Shown here piece after piece: positions 1-7,714 of a stretch of 7,844 nt of DNA; the first letter of the stretch is position 1; each line of letters starts with the position of its first letter. The translations under genes were made by a program, and so were the position numbers. The stretch is from assembly GCA_040752395.1 (NCBI GenBank), contig JBFMHD010000132.1:1-7844 (forward strand), written 5' to 3'. This DNA comes from JBFMHD01 sp040752395 [NCBI: Candidatus Hydrogenedentota bacterium] (GTDB taxonomy: Bacteria > JBFMHD01). The notes beneath the pieces are model-generated. The model saw nothing but the letters and a program-made list of their open reading frames with translations. It was not told where the DNA came from and did not search any database.

Positions 1-57
1 CTTCTTTCGTTATCTTTCTTTCCGTTATCTTGCTTCTTGCCTCTTGCTTCTTGCTTC
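1..57 (+). repeat. Heptamer-repeat array (left copy), truncated by window edge
   Basis: This is a pyrimidine-rich array built from 7-nt units such as TCTTGCC and TCTTGCT, with interspersed TCCGTTA and TTATCTT segments. It closely matches, in inverted orientation, the array at 7470-7556, and shares a 34-nt core with 3309-3342. The copies differ mainly by gain or loss of whole heptamers, as expected from slippage or unequal recombination. The array is open in the frame of the downstream gene, so an ORF caller extends leuB into it. The extension is not likely to be real protein. The left limit is unknown because the window starts inside the array. Confidence 0.9.
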
Positions 58-99
58 TACTTGATATTATTATAGTTACAATGTTTTTCAGAGGAGGAT
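58..99 (+). promoter_or_regulatory. 42-nt leader with strong RBS upstream of leuB (left copy of a duplicated cassette)
   Basis: This leader matches the reverse complement of 7428-7469 at 40 of 42 positions; the only differences are at 81-82 (AT here, GC there). It contains an AT-rich TATTATTATAGT stretch that could supply a -10 element, but no convincing -35 at correct spacing, so a promoter is only possible. It ends in AGAGGAGG (90-97), a near-perfect Shine-Dalgarno sequence 7 nt before the ATG at 105. This ribosome binding site decides the start of leuB. Confidence 0.75.
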
Positions 100-104
100 C
101 TTCA

Positions 105-1175
105 ATGGGTAAAACTTATAATGTCGCTGTTATTGGTGGTGATGGCACAGGACCAGAGGTTGTAAGAGAAGGTATTAAAGTCTTAAAATCAGTAGCTAAC
201 AGGTATAATTTTAAACTTAATTTAACTGAGTTTGACTTTGGTGGGGATAGATATCTAAGAACAGGTGAGGTTTTACCACAGAGCGCAATCGAGGAACTAA
301 AAAAGTTTGACGCTATATATCTTGGTGCCATAGGTCACCCTGATGTTAAACCAGGTATACTTGAAAAAGGGATTCTACTTACTCTGAGATTTGAGCTTCA
401 ACAATATATAAATTTAAGACCTGTCCAATTATATCCAGGTGTTGAAACACCGATAAAAGATAAGGGTCCAGAAGATATAGATTTTGTCGTAGTTAGAGAA
501 AATAATGAAGGGCTATATACAGGCAGCGGTGGTTTCTTAAGAAAAGGGACCAGCGAAGAGGTCGCTATCCAGACCTCGATAAATACAAGACAGGGTGTTG
601 AAAGATGTCTAAGATATGCATTTGAATATACAAGAAGGCGGAATAAAAAGAAGACCCTGACTCTCTGTGGTAAAACTAATGTCCTTACCTTCGCATTTGA
701 TTTATGGGAACGAGCTTTTCACGAGATAGGCGAAAAAGAATATCCTGATATTAAACGGGAATACACACACGTTGATGCGACCTGTATGTGGATGGTTAAA
801 AATCCAGAATGGTTTGATGTTATTGTTACTGATAATATGTTTGGCGACATTATCACAGACCTCGGTGCTATGATACAGGGCGGTATGGGGATAGCAGCAG
901 GCGGTAATATCAATCCCCGGGGGGGTTCTATGTTTGAGCCGATTGGTGGCAGCGCACCTAAATATACAGGCAAAAATGTTATAAATCCATTGGCTGCAAT
1001 CTGTGCAGGGATGATGATGCTTGATGAACTTGGAGAAACAATAGCTGCAAAAGCAATTGAAAGAGCAGTTATAAAAGTAACTGGAGAAAAACTTAAGAGT
1101 TTAAGTGCCGGTAAGATGGGTTATACTACAACACAAGTGGGCGATATGGTAGCCCAATTCGCAGCTGAACTGTAA
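105..1175 (+). CDS. leuB: 3-isopropylmalate dehydrogenase (isocitrate/isopropylmalate dehydrogenase family)
   Basis: This is a cytosolic beta-decarboxylating dehydrogenase. In leucine synthesis the family oxidises 3-isopropylmalate to 4-methyl-2-oxopentanoate and CO2, with a divalent metal. The protein has 356 residues, close to the usual family length. Visible landmarks are the N-terminal GGDGTGPE loop (11-18); substrate-site arginines R95, R105 and R131; Y138 in RENNEGLY; K190 in CGKTNVL; and metal aspartates D224, D248 and D252, the last two in the DNMFGDIITD signature. The cofactor loop reads GGSAPKYTGKNVINP (281-295). Its Lys-Tyr pair resembles NADP-dependent isocitrate dehydrogenase rather than the Asp-Ile of NAD-dependent LeuB. 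The ATG at 105 is chosen because AGAGGAGG lies 7 nt upstream; upstream in-frame codons are repeat DNA. No other leu gene is adjacent, so a related activity (homoisocitrate, tartrate or isocitrate) cannot be excluded. Confidence 0.88.
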   Translation: MGKTYNVAVIGGDGTGPEVVREGIKVLKSVANRYNFKLNLTEFDFGGDRYLRTGEVLPQSAIEELKKFDAIYLGAIGHPDVKPGILEKGILLTLRFELQQYINLRPVQLYPGVETPIKDKGPEDIDFVVVRENNEGLYTGSGGFLRKGTSEEVAIQTSINTRQGVERCLRYAFEYTRRRNKKKTLTLCGKTNVLTFAFDLWERAFHEIGEKEYPDIKREYTHVDATCMWMVKNPEWFDVIVTDNMFGDIITDLGAMIQGGMGIAAGGNINPRGGSMFEPIGGSAPKYTGKNVINPLAAICAGMMMLDELGETIAAKAIERAVIKVTGEKLKSLSAGKMGYTTTQVGDMVAQFAAEL

Positions 1176-1455
1176 TATGATTTGAGAGTTGACCAACACA
1201 ATATAAGTGAATGTTAGAACAAATAAGCATTCTTATTATATTATTTATATTTATAGTTTGCTCCTTTACACCCGGCTTTTTTTTCGTAAGAAAATTGGCT
1301 TTATTACCCGAAGAAAAGGTTGTTCTTTCCATGGGTTTATCTTATTTCATTCTCTATCTCGGGTCCTTTCTTTTATACATTTTCAATTTATCTGTAATAA
1401 GTTATTATTCTATCTCAATCATTTTTTTATTAATAACGGGCTATTTATAATAAAT

Positions 1456-1480
1456 GTATCAAAAAATTAATTTTTGATAC
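1456..1480. repeat. AT-rich perfect hairpin inside the decayed gene
   Basis: Two 10-nt arms, GTATCAAAAA and TTTTTGATAC, pair perfectly around a 5-nt ATTAA loop. A second weak hairpin follows directly (TTTGTG 1481-1486 with CACAAA 1496-1501). The stem is nearly all AT and has no downstream T run, so it is a poor intrinsic terminator. It sits just after the point where the membrane-protein frame breaks and may be part of a small insertion or a deletion scar. Confidence 0.5.
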
Positions 1481-1575
1481 TTTGTGTATGTTCCCCACAA
1501 ACAATAAAAAAATATTAGACATAAATAACACTCTTAAATTCACTTTTTTATGAATTTTTATCTTGTATTTTCTGC

Positions 1576-1589
1576 TTAACTATAGTTAA
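1576..1589. repeat. 14-nt perfect palindrome TTAACTATAGTTAA
   Basis: This perfect two-fold symmetric 14-mer lies 62 nt upstream of the glycosyltransferase start. It could be an operator for a dimeric regulator, but the surrounding DNA is very AT-rich, where such palindromes arise by chance. No paired promoter elements support a regulatory role. Confidence 0.25.
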
Positions 1590-1650
1590 AAAATTATATA
1601 CCAATATTTTTTATGATGAGTATAATTATTGCTGGGATATTTTTATTTTT

Positions 1651-3270
1651 ATGTCTATCAGAAAAAGAAACATAATTTTTTGTTTTTTTATATTGATACT
1701 TTTAAGTATCGAAGTCTTGAGCATACAGAAAAATACTCTAACATTTGATGAGATATGGCATTTTAGTTATGGTGTTAAAGTTTTAGAACTTAATCCTTCA
1801 AGGATACTACTTTATCATGACACAGCCTTGCCTTTCTCTTGTTTAAATGCTGCTTTTTATAAAACTTATTGTTTTATATATAGATTATTAAACCCAAAAA
1901 ATTACTCAAATGTAATTAACAGAATAGAACAGGGTAAAATAGCCACAATAATTTTATCACTCATTCTCGGAGCAGTTGTTTTTATATGGAGCGAGAAACT
2001 TTATGGTACAAAATCAGGGTTATTCTCTCTTTTTCTTTTTGTTTTCTGTCCCAATATAATTGCTCATTCAAGATTAATCACAAGTGACCTTTTTGTAGCG
2101 TTAATGGTAACAGTTTCACTTTATTCTTTCTGGCAATATAGAGATCAAGGTTCACAGCAAATTACTCTACCAAAGTTTAAAAGTGCATTCTATCTTGGAC
2201 TTTCACAATTAACAAAGTATTCAAGCCTATTTCTATACCCTATCTTTATTATTATTTTGCTGATACAGGAAAACAAAGCACTGAACTCAAACAAATTAAA
2301 ATCATTTTTAAAAACATCTTTCTTTTATCTTCTGATAAGTTTAATAGTAATAAATATTGGTTTCTTTTTTTATCAATCCTTTACTTTCTTTGGTAATTAT
2401 CAGCTAAAAAGCGCATTATTCAAAAATTTATCCAATTCTGTGCCACTTTTAAAATATATCCCTGTCCCACTACCCTATCCCTACCTCCAGGGTATAGATT
2501 TACTTATCGCACATAGTAAACCAGGTATAACCTGCGGTAATAATTACTTGTTCGGCGAGATACGCAGTGATAAAGGCTTTATGGGGTATTTTTTTGTCTG
2601 TTTTTTATTTAAAGTACCTATCTCTACCCAGATTTTTATAATCTGGGCTTTAATCTTCTACTTAAAAAACATAAACCAGTTTAATTTTAAAAAAAATGAA
2701 ATATTCTTAATTATCCCTGTTATATTCTATAATATTTATTTTAACTTTTTTACGGATAAACAGATTGGTTTTCGATATATATTAATGACTCTGCCTTTAT
2801 TATATATCTTCTGTGGTATTTTATTAAAAGGCGGCATAATTCGTGCTCAGGGATGGGACATTCCAAAATGGGGTGGTAAAAAAGTAATTATGTTGTGTCT
2901 TTGTCTATATCTTGTAATAAGTGTTTTATCATATTTCCCGCACTATATCTCTTATTTCAATGAATTGGTCTATGATAGAAAGATGGCATATAAAATACTA
3001 TCAGATTCGAATATTAACTGGGGCCAGAGCTGCTGGTATCTAATTGAATACTTAAAAACACATCCTGATGCGGTCTTCGAACCTGAAAAACCAACCACTG
3101 GTCATATAGTTGTTTCGATAATTAAATTAACCGGTGTGGCAGAGAGCGAGCGATTTAAGTGGTTACGGGAGAATTTCAAACCCGTTGATCACATCGCATA
3201 TTCTTATCTTGTGTTTGATATATCTGATACTGATTTGAAAGATTTAAAGATTCAAAGATTGAAAGATTAA
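1651..3270 (+). CDS. PMT/ArnT-like GT-C membrane glycosyltransferase (GT39-like)
   Basis: This is a predicted integral membrane protein of 539 residues. The family transfers sugars from polyprenyl-phosphate carriers to lipids or proteins on the outer face of the inner membrane; the acceptor here is unknown. Helix 1 spans roughly residues 7-25 and is followed by FDEIWHFSYG (32-41), whose Asp33-Glu34 pair is the GT-C acidic motif in the first outer loop. Other landmarks are AHSRLITSDLF (138-148), FRYILMTLPLLY (374-385), YFNELV (435-440) and DSNINWGQS (452-460). The last is a conserved C-terminal block of bacterial PMT-like proteins, and the later GVAESERFKWL and IAYSYLVFDI segments also fit. 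The start is at 1651 without a clear Shine-Dalgarno. It overlaps a possible membrane-protein remnant and may depend on coupling. The last 11 or so residues (LKDLKIQRLKD) are translated from an octamer repeat. Confidence 0.8.
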   Translation: MSIRKRNIIFCFFILILLSIEVLSIQKNTLTFDEIWHFSYGVKVLELNPSRILLYHDTALPFSCLNAAFYKTYCFIYRLLNPKNYSNVINRIEQGKIATIILSLILGAVVFIWSEKLYGTKSGLFSLFLFVFCPNIIAHSRLITSDLFVALMVTVSLYSFWQYRDQGSQQITLPKFKSAFYLGLSQLTKYSSLFLYPIFIIILLIQENKALNSNKLKSFLKTSFFYLLISLIVINIGFFFYQSFTFFGNYQLKSALFKNLSNSVPLLKYIPVPLPYPYLQGIDLLIAHSKPGITCGNNYLFGEIRSDKGFMGYFFVCFLFKVPISTQIFIIWALIFYLKNINQFNFKKNEIFLIIPVIFYNIYFNFFTDKQIGFRYILMTLPLLYIFCGILLKGGIIRAQGWDIPKWGGKKVIMLCLCLYLVISVLSYFPHYISYFNELVYDRKMAYKILSDSNINWGQSCWYLIEYLKTHPDAVFEPEKPTTGHIVVSIIKLTGVAESERFKWLRENFKPVDHIAYSYLVFDISDTDLKDLKIQRLKD

Positions 3271-3290
3271 AAGATTAAAAATTCAAAATT
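3232..3290 (+). repeat. GATTNAAA octamer array spanning the glycosyltransferase stop codon
   Basis: Six near-identical units follow one another: GATTTGAAA (9 nt, 3232-3240), GATTTAAA, GATTCAAA, GATTGAAA, GATTAAAA, GATTAAAA, then a degenerate ATTCAAAATT. The array starts about 12 codons before the end of the glycosyltransferase gene and supplies its TAA stop (3268-3270). A two-unit copy in the same sense relative to its gene lies just beyond the stop of the gene at the right edge (7699-7714). Confidence 0.85.
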
Positions 3291-3292
3291 AG

Positions 3293-3342
3293 GAGACAGA
3301 AGACAGACTTCTTGCTTCTTGCCTCTTTCGTTATCTTTCTTT
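3293..3342 (+). repeat. Heptamer-repeat copy between convergent genes
   Basis: Two purine heptamers (GAGACAG, AAGACAG; 3293-3306) lead into a pyrimidine array at 3309-3342 whose tail, CTTTCGTTATCTTTCTT, is the same as in the copies at 1-57 and 7470-7540. It lacks the leader and RBS and overlaps the hemW stop codon by 2 nt. AGAAG (3298-3302) can pair with CTTCT (3308-3312) across a 5-nt loop. That is too weak for a normal intrinsic terminator, and no better terminator was found between these tail-to-tail genes. Confidence 0.75.
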
Positions 3343-4444
3343 ATGGAAACATTTTGTCATAAATATTTTCTATTATTGTATCATAAATACTAAAACTACT
3401 TAATTTCAGATTTATATATCCTGGGTTTATATTGAAATATTTGATATTTTCAGCAATTATATCTTTCAAATAATTTACTATATCTATATCAAATATAGAT
3501 TTAAATCTATCTCTATTTATCCCATAAGTCGTTCTCAGACCTAAAAGAATGTATTCAAAGATAAGGTCTTTTTTTGTTAAATCGATACTCTGATTTATAG
3601 CTATACCATTTTTTTTAATATAAATATCTACATTAGATACATTATCCCAGCGTTTGTATTTTATTCTGGAATGAGCAGAGGCGCCAAGCCCAAGATAATC
3701 TTCACCGTTCCATATCCCGAGATTATGCTTGCATTCAAATCCATCAATACAGAAATTGCTGATTTCATAAATCTTAAAGCCTGCGGCTGATAGTATTTTA
3801 ATCTTTTCATCCCACATCTTTATAGCCATCCCTTCGTCAAGCTCCCAGTCTTGATACCAGTCTCTGTATCGGCTCTTTGAAAATTCGTAAACTGAAAGAT
3901 GTTCAGGCTGTAAATCAATTACTTTATTTAAACTCTTGATAAAACTCTCAATACTCTGTCCCGGGAACCCATAAATCAAATCAACATTTATATTATTAAA
4001 CCCAAGTTTTTTTGCTAATTCATAAGATTTTTTAAAATCAAAAAAGGTGTGTGTTCTTCCTAAAAATTTGAGTTCATTATCCTCTGTAGTTTGCAGTCCA
4101 AAACTAAATCTATTTACTTTATTCTCTTTTAATATTTTTATTTTATCTAAAGAAACAGAATCCGGGTTTAATTCGATGCTTATTTCTTCTGCATTTGCAG
4201 TCGGAAGAATTTTTAATATTTTATCTAATTGAGAGGTATTAAGCAAACCCGGATTACCACCGCCAATATAGACAGTCTGAAACACCGTTTCGCCAGGCAC
4301 GTAAGGGTGCTTGCGAAATTCATTAAAGAGGGAATCAAGATATATATTAATTCTATTATCGTTTTCAAAAACAGGTATCGAATAAAAATCACAGTAATTA
4401 CATTTCTTTTTACAGAACGGGATATGGATGTATAAATGCATCAT
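3341..4444 (-). CDS. hemW: HemW-like radical SAM protein (heme chaperone, HemN-related)
   Basis: This is a cytosolic radical SAM protein of 367 residues, a normal HemW length. The N-terminal YIHIPFCKKKCNYCDF holds the [4Fe-4S] cysteines C11, C15 and C18 in CX3CX2C spacing. The next position is D-F, not the fourth Cys of HemN coproporphyrinogen oxidase, which favours HemW. Other family blocks are NVDLIYGFPGQS (153-164), LSVYEF (183-188), YEISNF (226-231), EYLGLGASAHS-like DYLGLGASAHS (249-259) and LGLRTTYGI (301-309). Known HemW proteins bind heme and are thought to deliver it to respiratory enzymes. Oddities: GGGNPGLL (61-68) replaces the usual GGGTPS, and HNLGIW (240-245) departs from the HNxxYW motif linked to heme binding. 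The gene starts inside the upstream DarT-like gene (35-nt overlap), so translational coupling is likely. The start could be either of two adjacent ATGs. Confidence 0.88.
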   Translation of the reverse strand: MMHLYIHIPFCKKKCNYCDFYSIPVFENDNRINIYLDSLFNEFRKHPYVPGETVFQTVYIGGGNPGLLNTSQLDKILKILPTANAEEISIELNPDSVSLDKIKILKENKVNRFSFGLQTTEDNELKFLGRTHTFFDFKKSYELAKKLGFNNINVDLIYGFPGQSIESFIKSLNKVIDLQPEHLSVYEFSKSRYRDWYQDWELDEGMAIKMWDEKIKILSAAGFKIYEISNFCIDGFECKHNLGIWNGEDYLGLGASAHSRIKYKRWDNVSNVDIYIKKNGIAINQSIDLTKKDLIFEYILLGLRTTYGINRDRFKSIFDIDIVNYLKDIIAENIKYFNINPGYINLKLSSFSIYDTIIENIYDKMFP

Positions 4445-5021
4445 TCTCTACTTGTTTCAGATTAAAAATTAGATTTCTATAAAGTATCAGTCTATGTTTC
4501 CAGGATAGTGAGCCAAAATACTTTACAGATTTTACATATTTTAATGGAACGATATCTTTTATTAGTATCTCTGACATAAGATTTTTTAGTTTTGCTGTAT
4601 CATCATCAATAAACAAATCGCATAATGACTCTAAATTATCTCTGCCCTTTACATTCTCTAACTCCACACCATCGTAAGCTGTGTTTTTTAGTGAAAATAA
4701 TGTATCACTCAAAGCAGCAACCCAGATATCAATCTCAAAAATGAATATATCTCCCCTGTTCTCTTTTTTAATCATACCTCTTGGCAAATTAATTGAGAGA
4801 CAGATATAGGAAGCAAATTCTTCCTGTTTCCCTTTTCTACCCCAGCCATGTAATTTTGTAGGCTGTATATTTAATTCCCTCATTTTATTTCTTGATAATA
4901 GACCGCGGGCTTTAATAATGCTCTTTAGATTTTCTTTTAATGTAAAATGATAAAAACAATTAATCTGACGTCTCTGTAATTCTTCAATAATATTTTTATA
5001 ATCAGGTTTATATTCAAGCAT
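4410..5021 (-). CDS. DarT-like (DUF4433) ADP-ribosyltransferase, toxin candidate
   Basis: The protein has 203 residues from the ATG at 5021. Its landmarks fit the DarT fold order. The N-terminal NAD-site block CFYHFTLKENLKSI (22-35) is followed by GLLSRN (40-45), then YICLSINLPRGM (72-83) in the place of the DarT YVPFYF strand, FIFEIDI (93-99), and near residue 150 SEILIKDIVPLKYV. The Glu of that last block aligns with the catalytic glutamate of DarT. DarT enzymes ADP-ribosylate thymidine in single-stranded DNA and are neutralised by the macrodomain protein DarG. No macrodomain gene lies in this window. A GTG at 5060 would add 13 residues, but those codons are a TGCCTTTG repeat copy, and the ATG has a weak GAG-type RBS (AAAGAG, 5027-5032). 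The last residues overprint the hemW start. The assignment rests on motif order by eye; a related ART-fold enzyme with another target is possible. Confidence 0.6.
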   Translation of the reverse strand: MLEYKPDYKNIIEELQRRQINCFYHFTLKENLKSIIKARGLLSRNKMRELNIQPTKLHGWGRKGKQEEFASYICLSINLPRGMIKKENRGDIFIFEIDIWVAALSDTLFSLKNTAYDGVELENVKGRDNLESLCDLFIDDDTAKLKNLMSEILIKDIVPLKYVKSVKYFGSLSWKHRLILYRNLIFNLKQVENDAFIHPYPVL

Positions 5022-5044
5022 AACAATCTCTTTGTCAACTATGT

Positions 5045-5060
5045 TGAGGCACAAAGGCAC
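5045..5060 (-). repeat. Short TGCCTTTG-type octamer copy at the darT-like 5' end
   Basis: On the minus strand this reads GTGCCTTTGTGCCTCA, two units of the octamer family that is more complete at 7667-7698. It supplies the spurious GTG start and first codons of the longest possible darT-like frame. Confidence 0.6.
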
Positions 5061-5087
5061 AGATGGTGGGTAATTTGCTCTCGCAAT

Positions 5088-5126
5088 ATGGCATAGCAGT
5101 TACCAGATGGCATAACGGTTTAATGG
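5088..5126 (+). repeat. Two tandem ~20-nt imperfect repeats between the GYF_2 gene and the darT-like gene
   Basis: ATGGCATAGCAGTTACCAG (5088-5106) is followed at once by ATGGCATAACGGTTTAATGG (5107-5126). The first eight bases match exactly and most of the rest does too. The pair fills much of the 112-nt gap between these leftward genes. It may be a regulator site or another dispersed repeat family; nothing in the window decides this. Confidence 0.5.
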
Positions 5127-5133
5127 TACTATC

Positions 5134-7422
5134 TCATTCAAATTTTACTGGTTCGGCTAAATCTTTAAAAAATAAGATAGTTTGCTGTTTGATACCTTCT
5201 TCCTCATAAAAACTTGCAGTAGCTAAAGCAGAAACCGCAGATACAAGTGTCAAGCAGGGTTTAAATCGTCTTTCATAAAAGTTTTCCTCACCCTTTGAAA
5301 ACAACGCTTTATAACCCGCAGCAATATTCTCAACTTGAGCTAATAAAGTTCCGATATCAATTACAGCTATCGCCGATGATTTCTCAAAATCATTTAATTT
5401 TATAACATACTGGTTTTTTAAGATAGATTCACCGTTAGCAAAGGTTTCTAAACAGGACTTTAATGAATCCTTTGAGATACTAAAAAGTAAGAAACCATTA
5501 TTTTCTGTAAAACAAGGTGTTATAGCATCTCCGAGCTGTGTTTTCATAATAGTTACTTTTGAACCATTAATCTTTTCTTCAGCTACTTTTATCTGGTTTT
5601 TAGCTAATTTACTTAAATTTTTAAAAAGCTCTTTCAATGTCTGTGTCGGGTTCTCTCCCTCATTAATTTTTGAAGCTATTATTATGTTAACTAAAGGGAT
5701 GACTCCTTCTTGAGTTATTTTAGAGATAGCAAAACTACAGTCTGATGTTAATATCTTTTTTAATACTTTATCAATATCTATACCAAAATTCTGTTTACAC
5801 TTTTCGATTTGAGCCTTAAAAAATTCGACCTGCATCGGATTTGAACTGAATAATGTGACAACATATTCTTTCCAGGCCTCATAATTCCATGAGTTTGTTG
5901 TGAAACAGAGGATAGAATTTTGTGGTAAATATTTGGCGGTATTAAGTTCCTTGCTTTCGCCTTTTTTATAAAGATTTCTAATATATTCTGGTGCATCTTT
6001 TGAGAGCTGTGAGTAGGCATCTAAAATCAATTCTTCATCAATTGTAGCTGCGATTATAGAAAAATCAAAGGCTTTATAAACCTCAATAGCAGTTTTAAAT
6101 TGTTTTACTAAATCCTCTGTTAAAGACTCTTCAAAAAATTCACCTAATTTATTTAAGCCAATATATAGGGTTGAAACAACTTTTTCATCCGCATTAATCT
6201 TCTTTAAGGACTCGGTATATTTTTTCTCAAGTAATGTAACAGACCCTTCAGCTCTTTTGAGAAAAGCATTGGTAAAATTATCTCTGTCACTTGTTAAAAA
6301 CAGATTCTGCGATTTCAGACATATATATAAATCACCTTTTCCTAACATTTGCTCAGGCTTATCTGTTAAAACAAATTGTGGAGCCCCTTTTGTAGAATCT
6401 AAATAAGCTATTTCTTTATTGTTATACTCAACTGATATTTTATAGGTGCCGTCTTCTTTAACAGAGTATTTATAATCTTTGCCCCAGGGGTCAATCAGCA
6501 GTATTTCAAGATAATTTTCCTCAATAAGAATGTTAAGTCCCTCTTCTTCCGATGGATAGACTCCATTGTTATTATAATATGCTTTAATCGCGGTATTAAT
6601 TGTATTTAAATCCATAGTAATCTTCATCTGGTTCTGCATTGATAATGGCCCTAAAACCTCAGATAATTTCTGCATATCAATTACTGGTATATCTTTATAA
6701 ATATAAACCTTCAATCCCCCAATCTTCTCTATCTTAAGCTCTTTTTTCTTTAATAATTCTTTATATCTCTTCATATCAGTATCCTTGACCTTGCCACAGT
6801 ACAGCAACTCAAGCCGTGCTTTATTTGGATAAAACCCTAATGAAAATTCACCAGTAGTAGTTTCTAAAAACATATTAAAAAGATCACTGTCTTTAGACTG
6901 TGTTGTTTCTGATTTTGATTTAATTAAAGGGTCTATACTTTTATAAAAATTACTTTTTTTAAAATTATTTACATAGGGCAAAATATTTTTACCTGAAATG
7001 TATATAAGAGTAGAATCAGGATAGAGTTTAATATATTTATAATCTTTAGATTTTTCAAATATAGCAGATATATCATCCCGGAAATAAAACGTAGCATAAG
7101 AAACACCTGCGATCAATAATAATGCGATGACTCCAATAGTAGTCTTTACGCTAATGAATCTCTTTTCCTTTATTTCTTTTACTTCTTTTTTTTCTTCGGT
7201 GATTTGTGGCTGTGGAACCGCTGGCTGTTCTGTCTTAGTCTCTTGTGCAAATGCATCACCAAATTCTGGCAGTTCATTTATTAAAACCCACTCAGCTAAT
7301 CCCTCTTTCCATATATAATCTTCTTTTCTTAAAGACCCGTTTTTAATCAATCCTTTTATAACATCAATAGTATAAGGTCCTTCTTGTTTTCCGTCAGAAT
7401 ATAAAAAATATTCATCAGCCAT
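5134..7422 (-). CDS. GYF_2-TM-DUF3352-like membrane protein with embedded GspG-like segment
   Basis: This is a 762-residue protein of unknown function. Residues 5-52 form a GYF_2 domain (GPYTIDVIKGLIKNG; WKEGLAEW), a presumed cytoplasmic peptide-binding module. A Pro/Gln/Lys/Glu-rich linker (60-88) leads to one membrane helix (about 93-113), so the rest should lie outside the membrane. Two related blocks start with KLYPDSTLIYISGKN (132-146) and KYLPQNSILCFTTN (497-510), the look of DUF3352. Between them, residues 262-331 resemble the C-terminal part of type II secretion pseudopilin GspG: TINTAIKAYYNNNGVYP, EEGL, then DPWGKDYKY. The methylated N-terminal pilin helix is absent. The ATG at 7422 has AGAGGAGG (7430-7437) 7 nt upstream; a longer in-frame start at 7536 is repeat DNA. 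It is probably first in a leftward unit with the darT-like gene and hemW, though repeats fill the gap. Domain calls are by eye. Confidence 0.7.
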   Translation of the reverse strand: MADEYFLYSDGKQEGPYTIDVIKGLIKNGSLRKEDYIWKEGLAEWVLINELPEFGDAFAQETKTEQPAVPQPQITEEKKEVKEIKEKRFISVKTTIGVIALLLIAGVSYATFYFRDDISAIFEKSKDYKYIKLYPDSTLIYISGKNILPYVNNFKKSNFYKSIDPLIKSKSETTQSKDSDLFNMFLETTTGEFSLGFYPNKARLELLYCGKVKDTDMKRYKELLKKKELKIEKIGGLKVYIYKDIPVIDMQKLSEVLGPLSMQNQMKITMDLNTINTAIKAYYNNNGVYPSEEEGLNILIEENYLEILLIDPWGKDYKYSVKEDGTYKISVEYNNKEIAYLDSTKGAPQFVLTDKPEQMLGKGDLYICLKSQNLFLTSDRDNFTNAFLKRAEGSVTLLEKKYTESLKKINADEKVVSTLYIGLNKLGEFFEESLTEDLVKQFKTAIEVYKAFDFSIIAATIDEELILDAYSQLSKDAPEYIRNLYKKGESKELNTAKYLPQNSILCFTTNSWNYEAWKEYVVTLFSSNPMQVEFFKAQIEKCKQNFGIDIDKVLKKILTSDCSFAISKITQEGVIPLVNIIIASKINEGENPTQTLKELFKNLSKLAKNQIKVAEEKINGSKVTIMKTQLGDAITPCFTENNGFLLFSISKDSLKSCLETFANGESILKNQYVIKLNDFEKSSAIAVIDIGTLLAQVENIAAGYKALFSKGEENFYERRFKPCLTLVSAVSALATASFYEEEGIKQQTILFFKDLAEPVKFE

Positions 7423-7427
7423 TATAA

Positions 7428-7469
7428 ATCCTCCTCTGAAAAACGCTGTAACTATAATAATATCAAGTA
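7428..7469 (-). promoter_or_regulatory. 42-nt leader with strong RBS upstream of the GYF_2 gene (right copy)
   Basis: Read on the minus strand this matches 58-99 at 40 of 42 positions and ends with the same AGAGGAGG (7430-7437) at the same 7-nt distance from the ATG. Identity stops a few bases before each start codon (ATTTATA here, ATCTTCA at leuB), so the shared unit ends at the ribosome binding site and not in the coding sequence. Confidence 0.75.
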
Positions 7470-7577
7470 GAAACAAGAAGCAAGAAGCAAGAGGCAAGAT
7501 AACGGAAAGAAAGATAACGAAAGAAGCAAGAAGCAAGAGGCAAGATAACGGAAAAAGTAAGAAGTAAGAAGTATCAG
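7470..7577 (-). repeat. Heptamer-repeat array (right copy)
   Basis: On the plus strand the units read GAAACAA, GAAGCAA, GAAGCAA, GAGGCAA, GATAACG, GAAAGAA (7470-7511). An out-of-phase segment and a second round of GAAGCAA, GAAGCAA, GAGGCAA, GATAACG (7523-7550) follow, then GTAAGAA, GTAAGAA, GTATCAG (7557-7577). The second round is an internal duplication of about 46 nt that includes the unit sequence GATAACGGAAA. Its minus strand lies in the same relation to the GYF_2 leader as positions 1-57 do to the leuB leader. Confidence 0.88.
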
Positions 7578-7581
7578 GACA

Positions 7582-7637
7582 GGCTACGGGCTACGGACTA
7601 CAGCCGGCTGGAGCCAAAAGCCCAGAGCCTGAAGCCA
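7582..7637. repeat. GC-rich heptamer run, eight consecutive 7-nt units
   Basis: The units are GGCTACG, GGCTACG, GACTACA, GCCGGCT, GGAGCCA, AAAGCCC, AGAGCCT and GAAGCCA, all in one register. The first three share a core and the last four share NNAGCCN. Base composition is much richer in GC than the rest of the window. A tRNA or attenuator fold was considered and not found. Confidence 0.7.
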
Positions 7638-7658
7638 ACATATCATCTTTAGTTTTTC

Positions 7659-7714
7659 ATGCTTTGTGCCTTAGTGCCTTTGTGCCTTTGTGCCTTTCCT
7701 TTGAATCTTTCAAT
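7659..7714. repeat. Octamer block: TGCCTTTG units followed by GATTNAAA-family units
   Basis: TGCCTTAG, TGCCTTTG, TGCCTTTG and TGCCTTTC run from 7667 to 7698. TTTGAATC (7699-7706) and TTTCAATT (7707-7714), the reverse complement of the octamer family at 3232-3290, follow directly. The block ends 4 nt beyond the stop codon (7719-7721) of the leftward gene at the window edge. Confidence 0.75.

What the first reader, a model, noticed from the sequence alone, without database searches (positions are those of the whole stretch)
58..7469. Same 42-nt leader and RBS, with the same heptamer array behind it, placed before two unrelated genes
Positions 58-99 and the reverse complement of 7428-7469 agree at 40 of 42 bases. 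Each ends in AGAGGAGG 7 nt before an ATG, and each is preceded by the same TCTTGCT-type heptamer array. The genes behind them (leuB and a GYF_2/DUF3352 membrane protein) are not related, and identity stops at the RBS. This looks like a dispersed, non-autonomous unit that delivers a translation signal, and maybe a promoter, to whatever gene it lands beside. The near-identity implies recent copying or gene conversion.
Basis: partly seen in the sequence, partly recalled or inferred. Interest (0 to 1): 0.75.

Follow-up and report, generated by a model that had tools for sequence, protein, structure and literature searches.

The report
Array-borne leader copied before two genes
Two unrelated genes in an unidentified bacterium begin with almost the same stretch of about 100 bases (a short-word repeat array plus a ribosome-binding leader), most likely because the control region in front of one gene was copied to the other through the repeat array; whether it is a true mobile element cannot be told from one contig.

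Summary
Window 1-108 and the reverse complement of 7419-7526 match at 100 of 108 bases without gaps: array 54/57, leader 40/42; the 150 bases after the shared ATGG match at 43. Both copies carry AGAGGAGG 7 nt before ATG. A third, array-only copy (3310-3342, 32/33) reaches hemW's stop codon without the leader, so array and leader are separable. Best reading: an intergenic 7-mer array served as a handle by which one gene's leader and ribosome-binding site was copied in front of another gene. A promoter is only inferred: the sigma-70 scan lists none there. No genome is held; an exact leader pattern matched nothing in genome contigs or IMG/VR; looser searches of 384 and 249 genomes gave one weak 30-nt hit and none, without a positive control. 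No close relative was found, so copy number and empty sites stay untested. Heptamer arrays, promoter-bearing repeats and upstream-region switching are each known; this combination is a possible new variant.

The parts
1..57 (+). array part of copy A (7-mers TTGCTTC/TTGCCTC mixed with CGTTATC and TTTC words), cut by the window start
   Evidence: 54 of 57 identical to copy B; Tandem Repeats Finder 28-58, period 7, 4.4 copies
58..99 (+). leader of copy A with the ribosome-binding site AGAGGAGG (90-97), 7 nt before the leuB ATG at 105
   Evidence: 40 of 42 identical to copy B; ribosome-binding site and spacing
62..70 (+). possible extended -10 element TGATATTAT (inferred only)
   Evidence: motif expected 1.93 times per window by chance
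105..1175 (+). leuB, 3-isopropylmalate dehydrogenase
3310..3342 (+). copy C: array only, no leader, reaching into the hemW stop codon
   Evidence: 32 of 33 identical to the reverse complement of 7506-7538; the hemW ORF ends at 3341
7428..7469 (-). leader of copy B with AGAGGAGG at 7430-7437, 7 nt before the ATG at 7422
7457..7465 (-). possible extended -10 element TGATATTAT of copy B (inferred only)
7470..7573 (-). array part of copy B: 57 bases shared with copy A, then a second 46-base unit and further 7-mer words
5134..7422 (-). gene behind copy B: GYF_2 domain, T2SSG-like segment; a transmembrane-like segment by eye only

Best explanation
The contig carries an intergenic short-word repeat of the heptameric array (STRR) kind at three sites. 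At two of them a 42-nt leader with a strong ribosome-binding site, and probably a start site for transcription, sits at the array's edge. The most likely history: the leader belonged to one of the two genes, and recombination, conversion or template switching anchored in the array copied array plus leader to the front of the other gene, replacing its old 5' region up to the spacer before the ATG. The two genes would now share transcription and translation signals. Shown: the identity, its extent, its end at the start codon, the array-only third copy. Inferred: copying through the array, promoter activity, shared expression. Unknown: which gene was the donor.
For: 100 of 108 identical, ungapped, array and leader about equally similar (54/57 and 40/42), so they were probably copied together. 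Similarity is lost after the start codon (43 of 150), against duplication of a whole gene. The array also occurs alone at 3310-3342, so the array is the wider repeat. Periods 7 and 8 are the only ones found between 5 and 12. Period-7 arrays turned up in 9 of 81 loci fetched with LeuB, by a stricter script criterion under which the window itself shows only copy B. A correctly spaced ribosome-binding site is in both copies. Replacement of an upstream region by an unrelated one is described (horizontal regulatory transfer, passages of PMC5890482).
Against: Only two full copies, one cut by the window edge. No relative with an empty or ancestral site was found in the searches made. No sigma-70-type hit in the leader, extended -10 match at chance level, no RNA structure signal (z 0.18, 0.59, 1.30, -0.11), no Rfam match. 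Of the repeat pairs that one search listed in 27 of 106 loci I read one pair in each of 8 loci: none showed a leader shared by two different genes.
Confidence: 0.48

Rival explanations
1. The array-leader unit is a multi-copy, non-autonomous mobile element that inserts beside start codons and brings a promoter and a ribosome-binding site, much like a Correia-type MITE.
For: Two copies, both directed at a start codon. The window begins inside one copy, which would fit an assembly break at a repeat if the window is a whole contig (not known). Promoter-bearing MITEs lying upstream of genes are known (PMC10969869, passages).
Against: The array-only copy C has no leader. No self-complementary structure above shuffles in copies A or B. 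The exact leader pattern matched nothing in genome contigs or viral contigs. An end that falls exactly in the spacer of two different genes is odd for a transposon.
Confidence: 0.2
2. The two copies are inverted repeats that bound a 7.3-kb block of convergent genes. Recombination or gene conversion between them keeps them alike and may invert the block; the spread of the repeat is incidental.
For: Inverted arms, 7310 nt apart, both pointing inwards; Correia elements can undergo inversion (PMC10969869, passage).
Against: Eight mismatches remain. This does not explain how the second copy arose. None of the five proteins scanned matched a recombinase family in the rows shown.
Confidence: 0.12
3. 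Assembly or amplification artefact: a fold-back chimera at the contig end created an inverted copy of the leader.
For: Copy A starts at window base 1; the copies are inverted.
Against: The copies differ at 8 of 108 bases, and each is followed at the normal distance by a different gene whose family match begins within five residues of the ATG.
Confidence: 0.07
4. The shared stretch is translated: an in-frame, hydrophobic N-terminal extension fused to both proteins, as with repeat elements that carry reading frames.
For: The leuB and GYF_2 frames stay open through leader and array in both copies; MITE frames fused to genes are described (PMC2229807, part 1 of 3).
Against: A ribosome-binding site and ATG lie at the family's usual start. 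The five differences in 1-99 fall on codon positions 2, 3, 1, 1, 2, no sign of selection on the peptide. By inspection, an array of these words gives few stops in any frame.
Confidence: 0.05
5. Remnant of one segmental duplication that once ran into the genes.
For: Such partial duplications exist: in L043 an array, a ribosome-binding site and the start of the gene behind it are all repeated.
Against: 43 of 150 matches after the shared ATGG, and two different protein families.
Confidence: 0.05

Closest known systems
Heptamer arrays: STRR of cyanobacteria (search listing only) and GGGNATC heptamers of Xanthomonas/Nostoc (PMC4692102, abstract and passages)
   Same: 7-base units in tandem, mostly intergenic, variable unit number, several sites
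   Different: Other words (TTGCYTC, CGTTATC), not G-run type; here a leader with a ribosome-binding site is attached to the array at two of three sites
TAACTGA direct repeats of Beggiatoaceae (PMC4679880: abstract, sections 7 and 13)
   Same: Heptamer repeats directed at start codons of unrelated genes; a regulatory role is proposed there
   Different: There most repeats lack a ribosome-binding site (15 of 147 start-directed sets have one) and no shared leader is described in what I read; here a canonical site follows the array
Correia/NEMIS and other promoter-bearing MITEs (PMC10969869 passages; PMC2229807 part 1 of 3)
   Same: Roughly 100-bp repeats near genes that can bring promoters
   Different: No terminal inverted repeats, target-site duplication or stem-loop RNA shown here; a strong ribosome-binding site lies inside the shared unit
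Horizontal regulatory transfer / intergenic-region switching (PMC5890482 passages)
   Same: Replacement of one gene's upstream region by an unrelated one
   Different: Here the two regions belong to two genes of the same contig, with a repeat array as the likely handle

Membership tests
Heptamer (STRR-type) tandem array | 7-bp units in tandem, intergenic | tested here: met
   period 7 at 24-63 and 7461-7503; mean 0.00 hits in 100 Markov sequences
Heptamer (STRR-type) tandem array | many sites in the genome | not testable with these tools
   no genome held; three sites of the same array in 7.8 kb
MITE (Correia-like) | terminal inverted repeats / stem-loop | tested here: inconclusive
   left end cut by the window; no structure stronger than shuffles in copies A or B
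MITE (Correia-like) | target-site duplication and empty sites in relatives | not testable with these tools
   no close relative found
MITE (Correia-like) | promoter within the element (a feature of some MITEs) | tested here: inconclusive
   no sigma-70-type hit; extended -10 match at chance level
MITE (Correia-like) | multiple copies of the same unit | tested here: inconclusive
   two full copies and one array-only copy
Intergenic-region switching | non-homologous genes share an upstream region that ends at the start codon | tested here: met
Intergenic-region switching | alternative upstream regions of the same gene in related strains | not testable with these tools
   no close relatives found
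Invertible segment | both orientations present in a population | not testable with these tools
   needs reads

The most novel reading that the evidence does not exclude
A genome-wide family of array-borne 'start modules': dispersed units of a 7-mer array plus promoter plus ribosome-binding site that end in the spacer before the ATG and rewire unrelated genes by array-anchored copying, so that many genes share one expression signal.
Probability: 0.2. Interest if true: 0.75.

Novelty: new variant of a known kind. Interest (0 to 1): 0.36.

Why it matters
If confirmed in the whole genome, it would link two poorly understood things: heptamer arrays in uncultured bacteria, and the copying of ready-made start signals between genes. 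It would give a testable route (array-anchored recombination) by which unrelated genes come under one control. With two copies on one contig it remains a well-documented curiosity.

Tried and rejected
Further copies in the genome: none held. Exact leader pattern in genome contigs and viral contigs: 0; exact array word in viral contigs: 0; the first 140 bases in plasmids: one 27-nt hit, E 0.4, at the start of the coding part.

The LeuB tree (82 rows) puts the window, end branch 0.25 against a median of 0.11, beside Omnitrophota, Verrucomicrobiota and one Sumerlaeota row at 86/76, not a firm placement. HemW reaches at most 42% identity in 40 genomes (37 with a match) and 40% in 119 (101 with a match), and nothing at E <= 1e-70 in 40, 299 and 295 genomes, a few of them already (the tool warns that an empty answer without a positive control shows nothing). 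The GYF_2 protein gave weak matches in 3 of 18, 7 of 44 and 47 of 237 genomes, many of the T2SSG segment only. Two protein scans of viral contigs found no relative.

Array word CTTGCYTCTTGCYTC... in 237 Omnitrophota genomes: 4 have it, against 2 for the control (pattern read backwards). In three of the four the array overlaps a mechanical reading frame, in G221 a long one; only L110 (G125) is intergenic. So the word is no mark of kinship. In G125 a shorter exact array pattern has two sites (three overlapping matches). Array edge plus leader (62 bases): 1 of 384 genomes of the phylum of G011 (Omnitrophota by title), a 30-nt 87% match that I take as chance, and 0 of 249 of the phylum of G302 (Verrucomicrobia by title). 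RNA fold and Rfam: nothing. The translated-extension idea was set low on codon positions. Paper searches (and 47 showed part of their hits) listed no paper on a shared leader behind a heptamer array; the library lacks most subscription papers.
Full report
Observation. The two stretches exist as described and are part of a longer match. Window 1-108 and the reverse complement of 7419-7526 agree at 100 of 108 bases without a gap. The array part (1-57) agrees at 54 of 57, the leader (58-99) at 40 of 42; the differences lie at 34, 41, 54, 81, 82, 100, 102 and 103. Beyond the shared ATGG the next 150 bases agree at 43, about chance level. The 35-nt leader core occurs twice in the window with up to 3 mismatches, 0.00 expected from 200 shuffles. 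In both copies AGAGGAGG is followed by 7 bases and ATG (with up to 2 mismatches that short pattern alone is expected 1.37 times). The window starts inside copy A, so its left edge is unknown.

Genes. leuB (105-1175, +) is a clear 3-isopropylmalate dehydrogenase. The gene behind copy B (7422-5134, -) has GYF_2 and a T2SSG-like segment; DUF3352 was not found at E <= 0.001. Between them lie a PMT-type membrane protein (1651-3270, +), a HemW-like radical SAM protein (4444-3341, -) and a DarT-like protein. The genes converge, and both leader copies point into the block.

Array. The scan of periods 5-12 finds only periods 7 and 8: 24-63 and 7461-7503 (7), 3232-3291 and 7655-7702 (8); 100 Markov sequences gave a mean of 0.01 hits for period 5 and 0.00 for the rest. 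Copy B has the shared part and a second 46-base unit of the same words (34 identical bases at a spacing of 46). A third site, 3310-3342, matches copy B's array at 32 of 33 but has no leader and reaches into the hemW stop codon. Thus array and leader are separable.

Function. The leader holds a strong ribosome-binding site. A promoter is inferred: TGATATTAT stands in both copies, but the motif TGNTATWAT is found 3 times and expected 1.93 times per window, and the sigma-70 scan lists no site there (32 sites in the whole window against 35.2 in shuffles). RNA folding is no better than shuffles, and Rfam has no match. Both reading frames remain open through leader and array, but the differences within 1-99 fall on codon positions 2, 3, 1, 1, 2, and the family matches begin within five residues of the ATG, so translation of the leader is unlikely.

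Relatives. No whole genome is held. The exact leader pattern is absent from genome contigs and viral contigs. HemW and the GYF_2 protein found no close relative. Array edge plus leader gave one 30-nt hit in 384 genomes of the phylum of G011 and none in 249 of the phylum of G302. These negatives lack a positive control, as the tool says.

Comparison loci. Nine of 81 loci hold a period-7 array by the criterion, which in the window passes only copy B. In 106 loci (1,085,163 bases) a self-comparison listed dispersed repeat pairs in 27; I read one pair in each of eight. L016 has self-inverted 7-mer arrays on both sides of leuB with no shared leader; L031 has an array-bearing repeat at two places; L043 repeats array, ribosome-binding site and the beginning of the gene behind it, an ordinary partial duplication. 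None shows what the window shows. In an Omnitrophota genome the same 7-mer word forms two inverted arms before a gene (L110).

Interpretation. Array and leader are about equally similar between copies, so they were probably copied together; the coding parts are not related; the array also occurs alone. I therefore favour copying of a leader through its array, with the end set by the need to keep the recipient's start codon (0.48). A transposing multi-copy unit (0.20) needs more copies and defined ends. Inversion or conversion between inverted repeats (0.12) may maintain the likeness. An artefact (0.07) is disfavoured by the 8 differences. Seen of the literature: PMC4679880 (abstract, sections 7 and 13), PMC4692102 (abstract, passages), PMC2229807 (part 1 of 3), PMC10969869 and PMC5890482 (passages); the STRR papers in a search listing only. 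Heptamer arrays, promoter-bearing MITEs and upstream-region switching are each known; the joint of array and ribosome-binding leader before unrelated genes was not in the listings of my searches.

Noticed in passing
3232-3291: An 8-mer array (AAAGATTA-like) encodes the last residues and the stop of the PMT-type protein (ORF ends at 3270), so the array forms or has overrun the gene's 3' end.
   Followed up: partly
7582-7702: The intergenic region upstream of copy B is a mosaic of further short-word arrays: GGCTACG 7-mers within a 77% palindrome, then CTTTGTGC 8-mers; a related GGCACAAA word lies at about 5047-5063 at the start of the DarT-like frame (by eye).
   Followed up: partly
4413-5060: DarT-like ADP-ribosyltransferase (Pfam DarT 2.1e-11; PADLOC DarT 3.2e-6) whose frame overlaps hemW by about 30 bases; none of the five proteins scanned matched a macrodomain (DarG-like) family.
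   Followed up: partly
1213-1449: A 78-codon frame that reads like the start of a membrane protein (by eye), no Pfam match at E <= 1, before the PMT gene; possibly the remnant of a broken gene.
   Followed up: partly
L016:7862-7938 and 9058-9134: Self-inverted 7-mer arrays (CAGAATA words) stand on both sides of leuB in a MAG titled Chlamydiae bacterium, one 20 bases before the next predicted frame.
   Followed up: partly
L053:2677-2862, 9626-9812, 12362-12476: A palindromic MITE-like repeat built of short words (CCACAGAG, ATCCACAGATTA) in three or more copies within 17 kb of a Nitrospirae MAG.
   Followed up: no
L043:1091-1233 and 2008-2149: Partial duplication of an 8-mer array, ribosome-binding site and 5' end of the gene after leuB.
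   Followed up: partly
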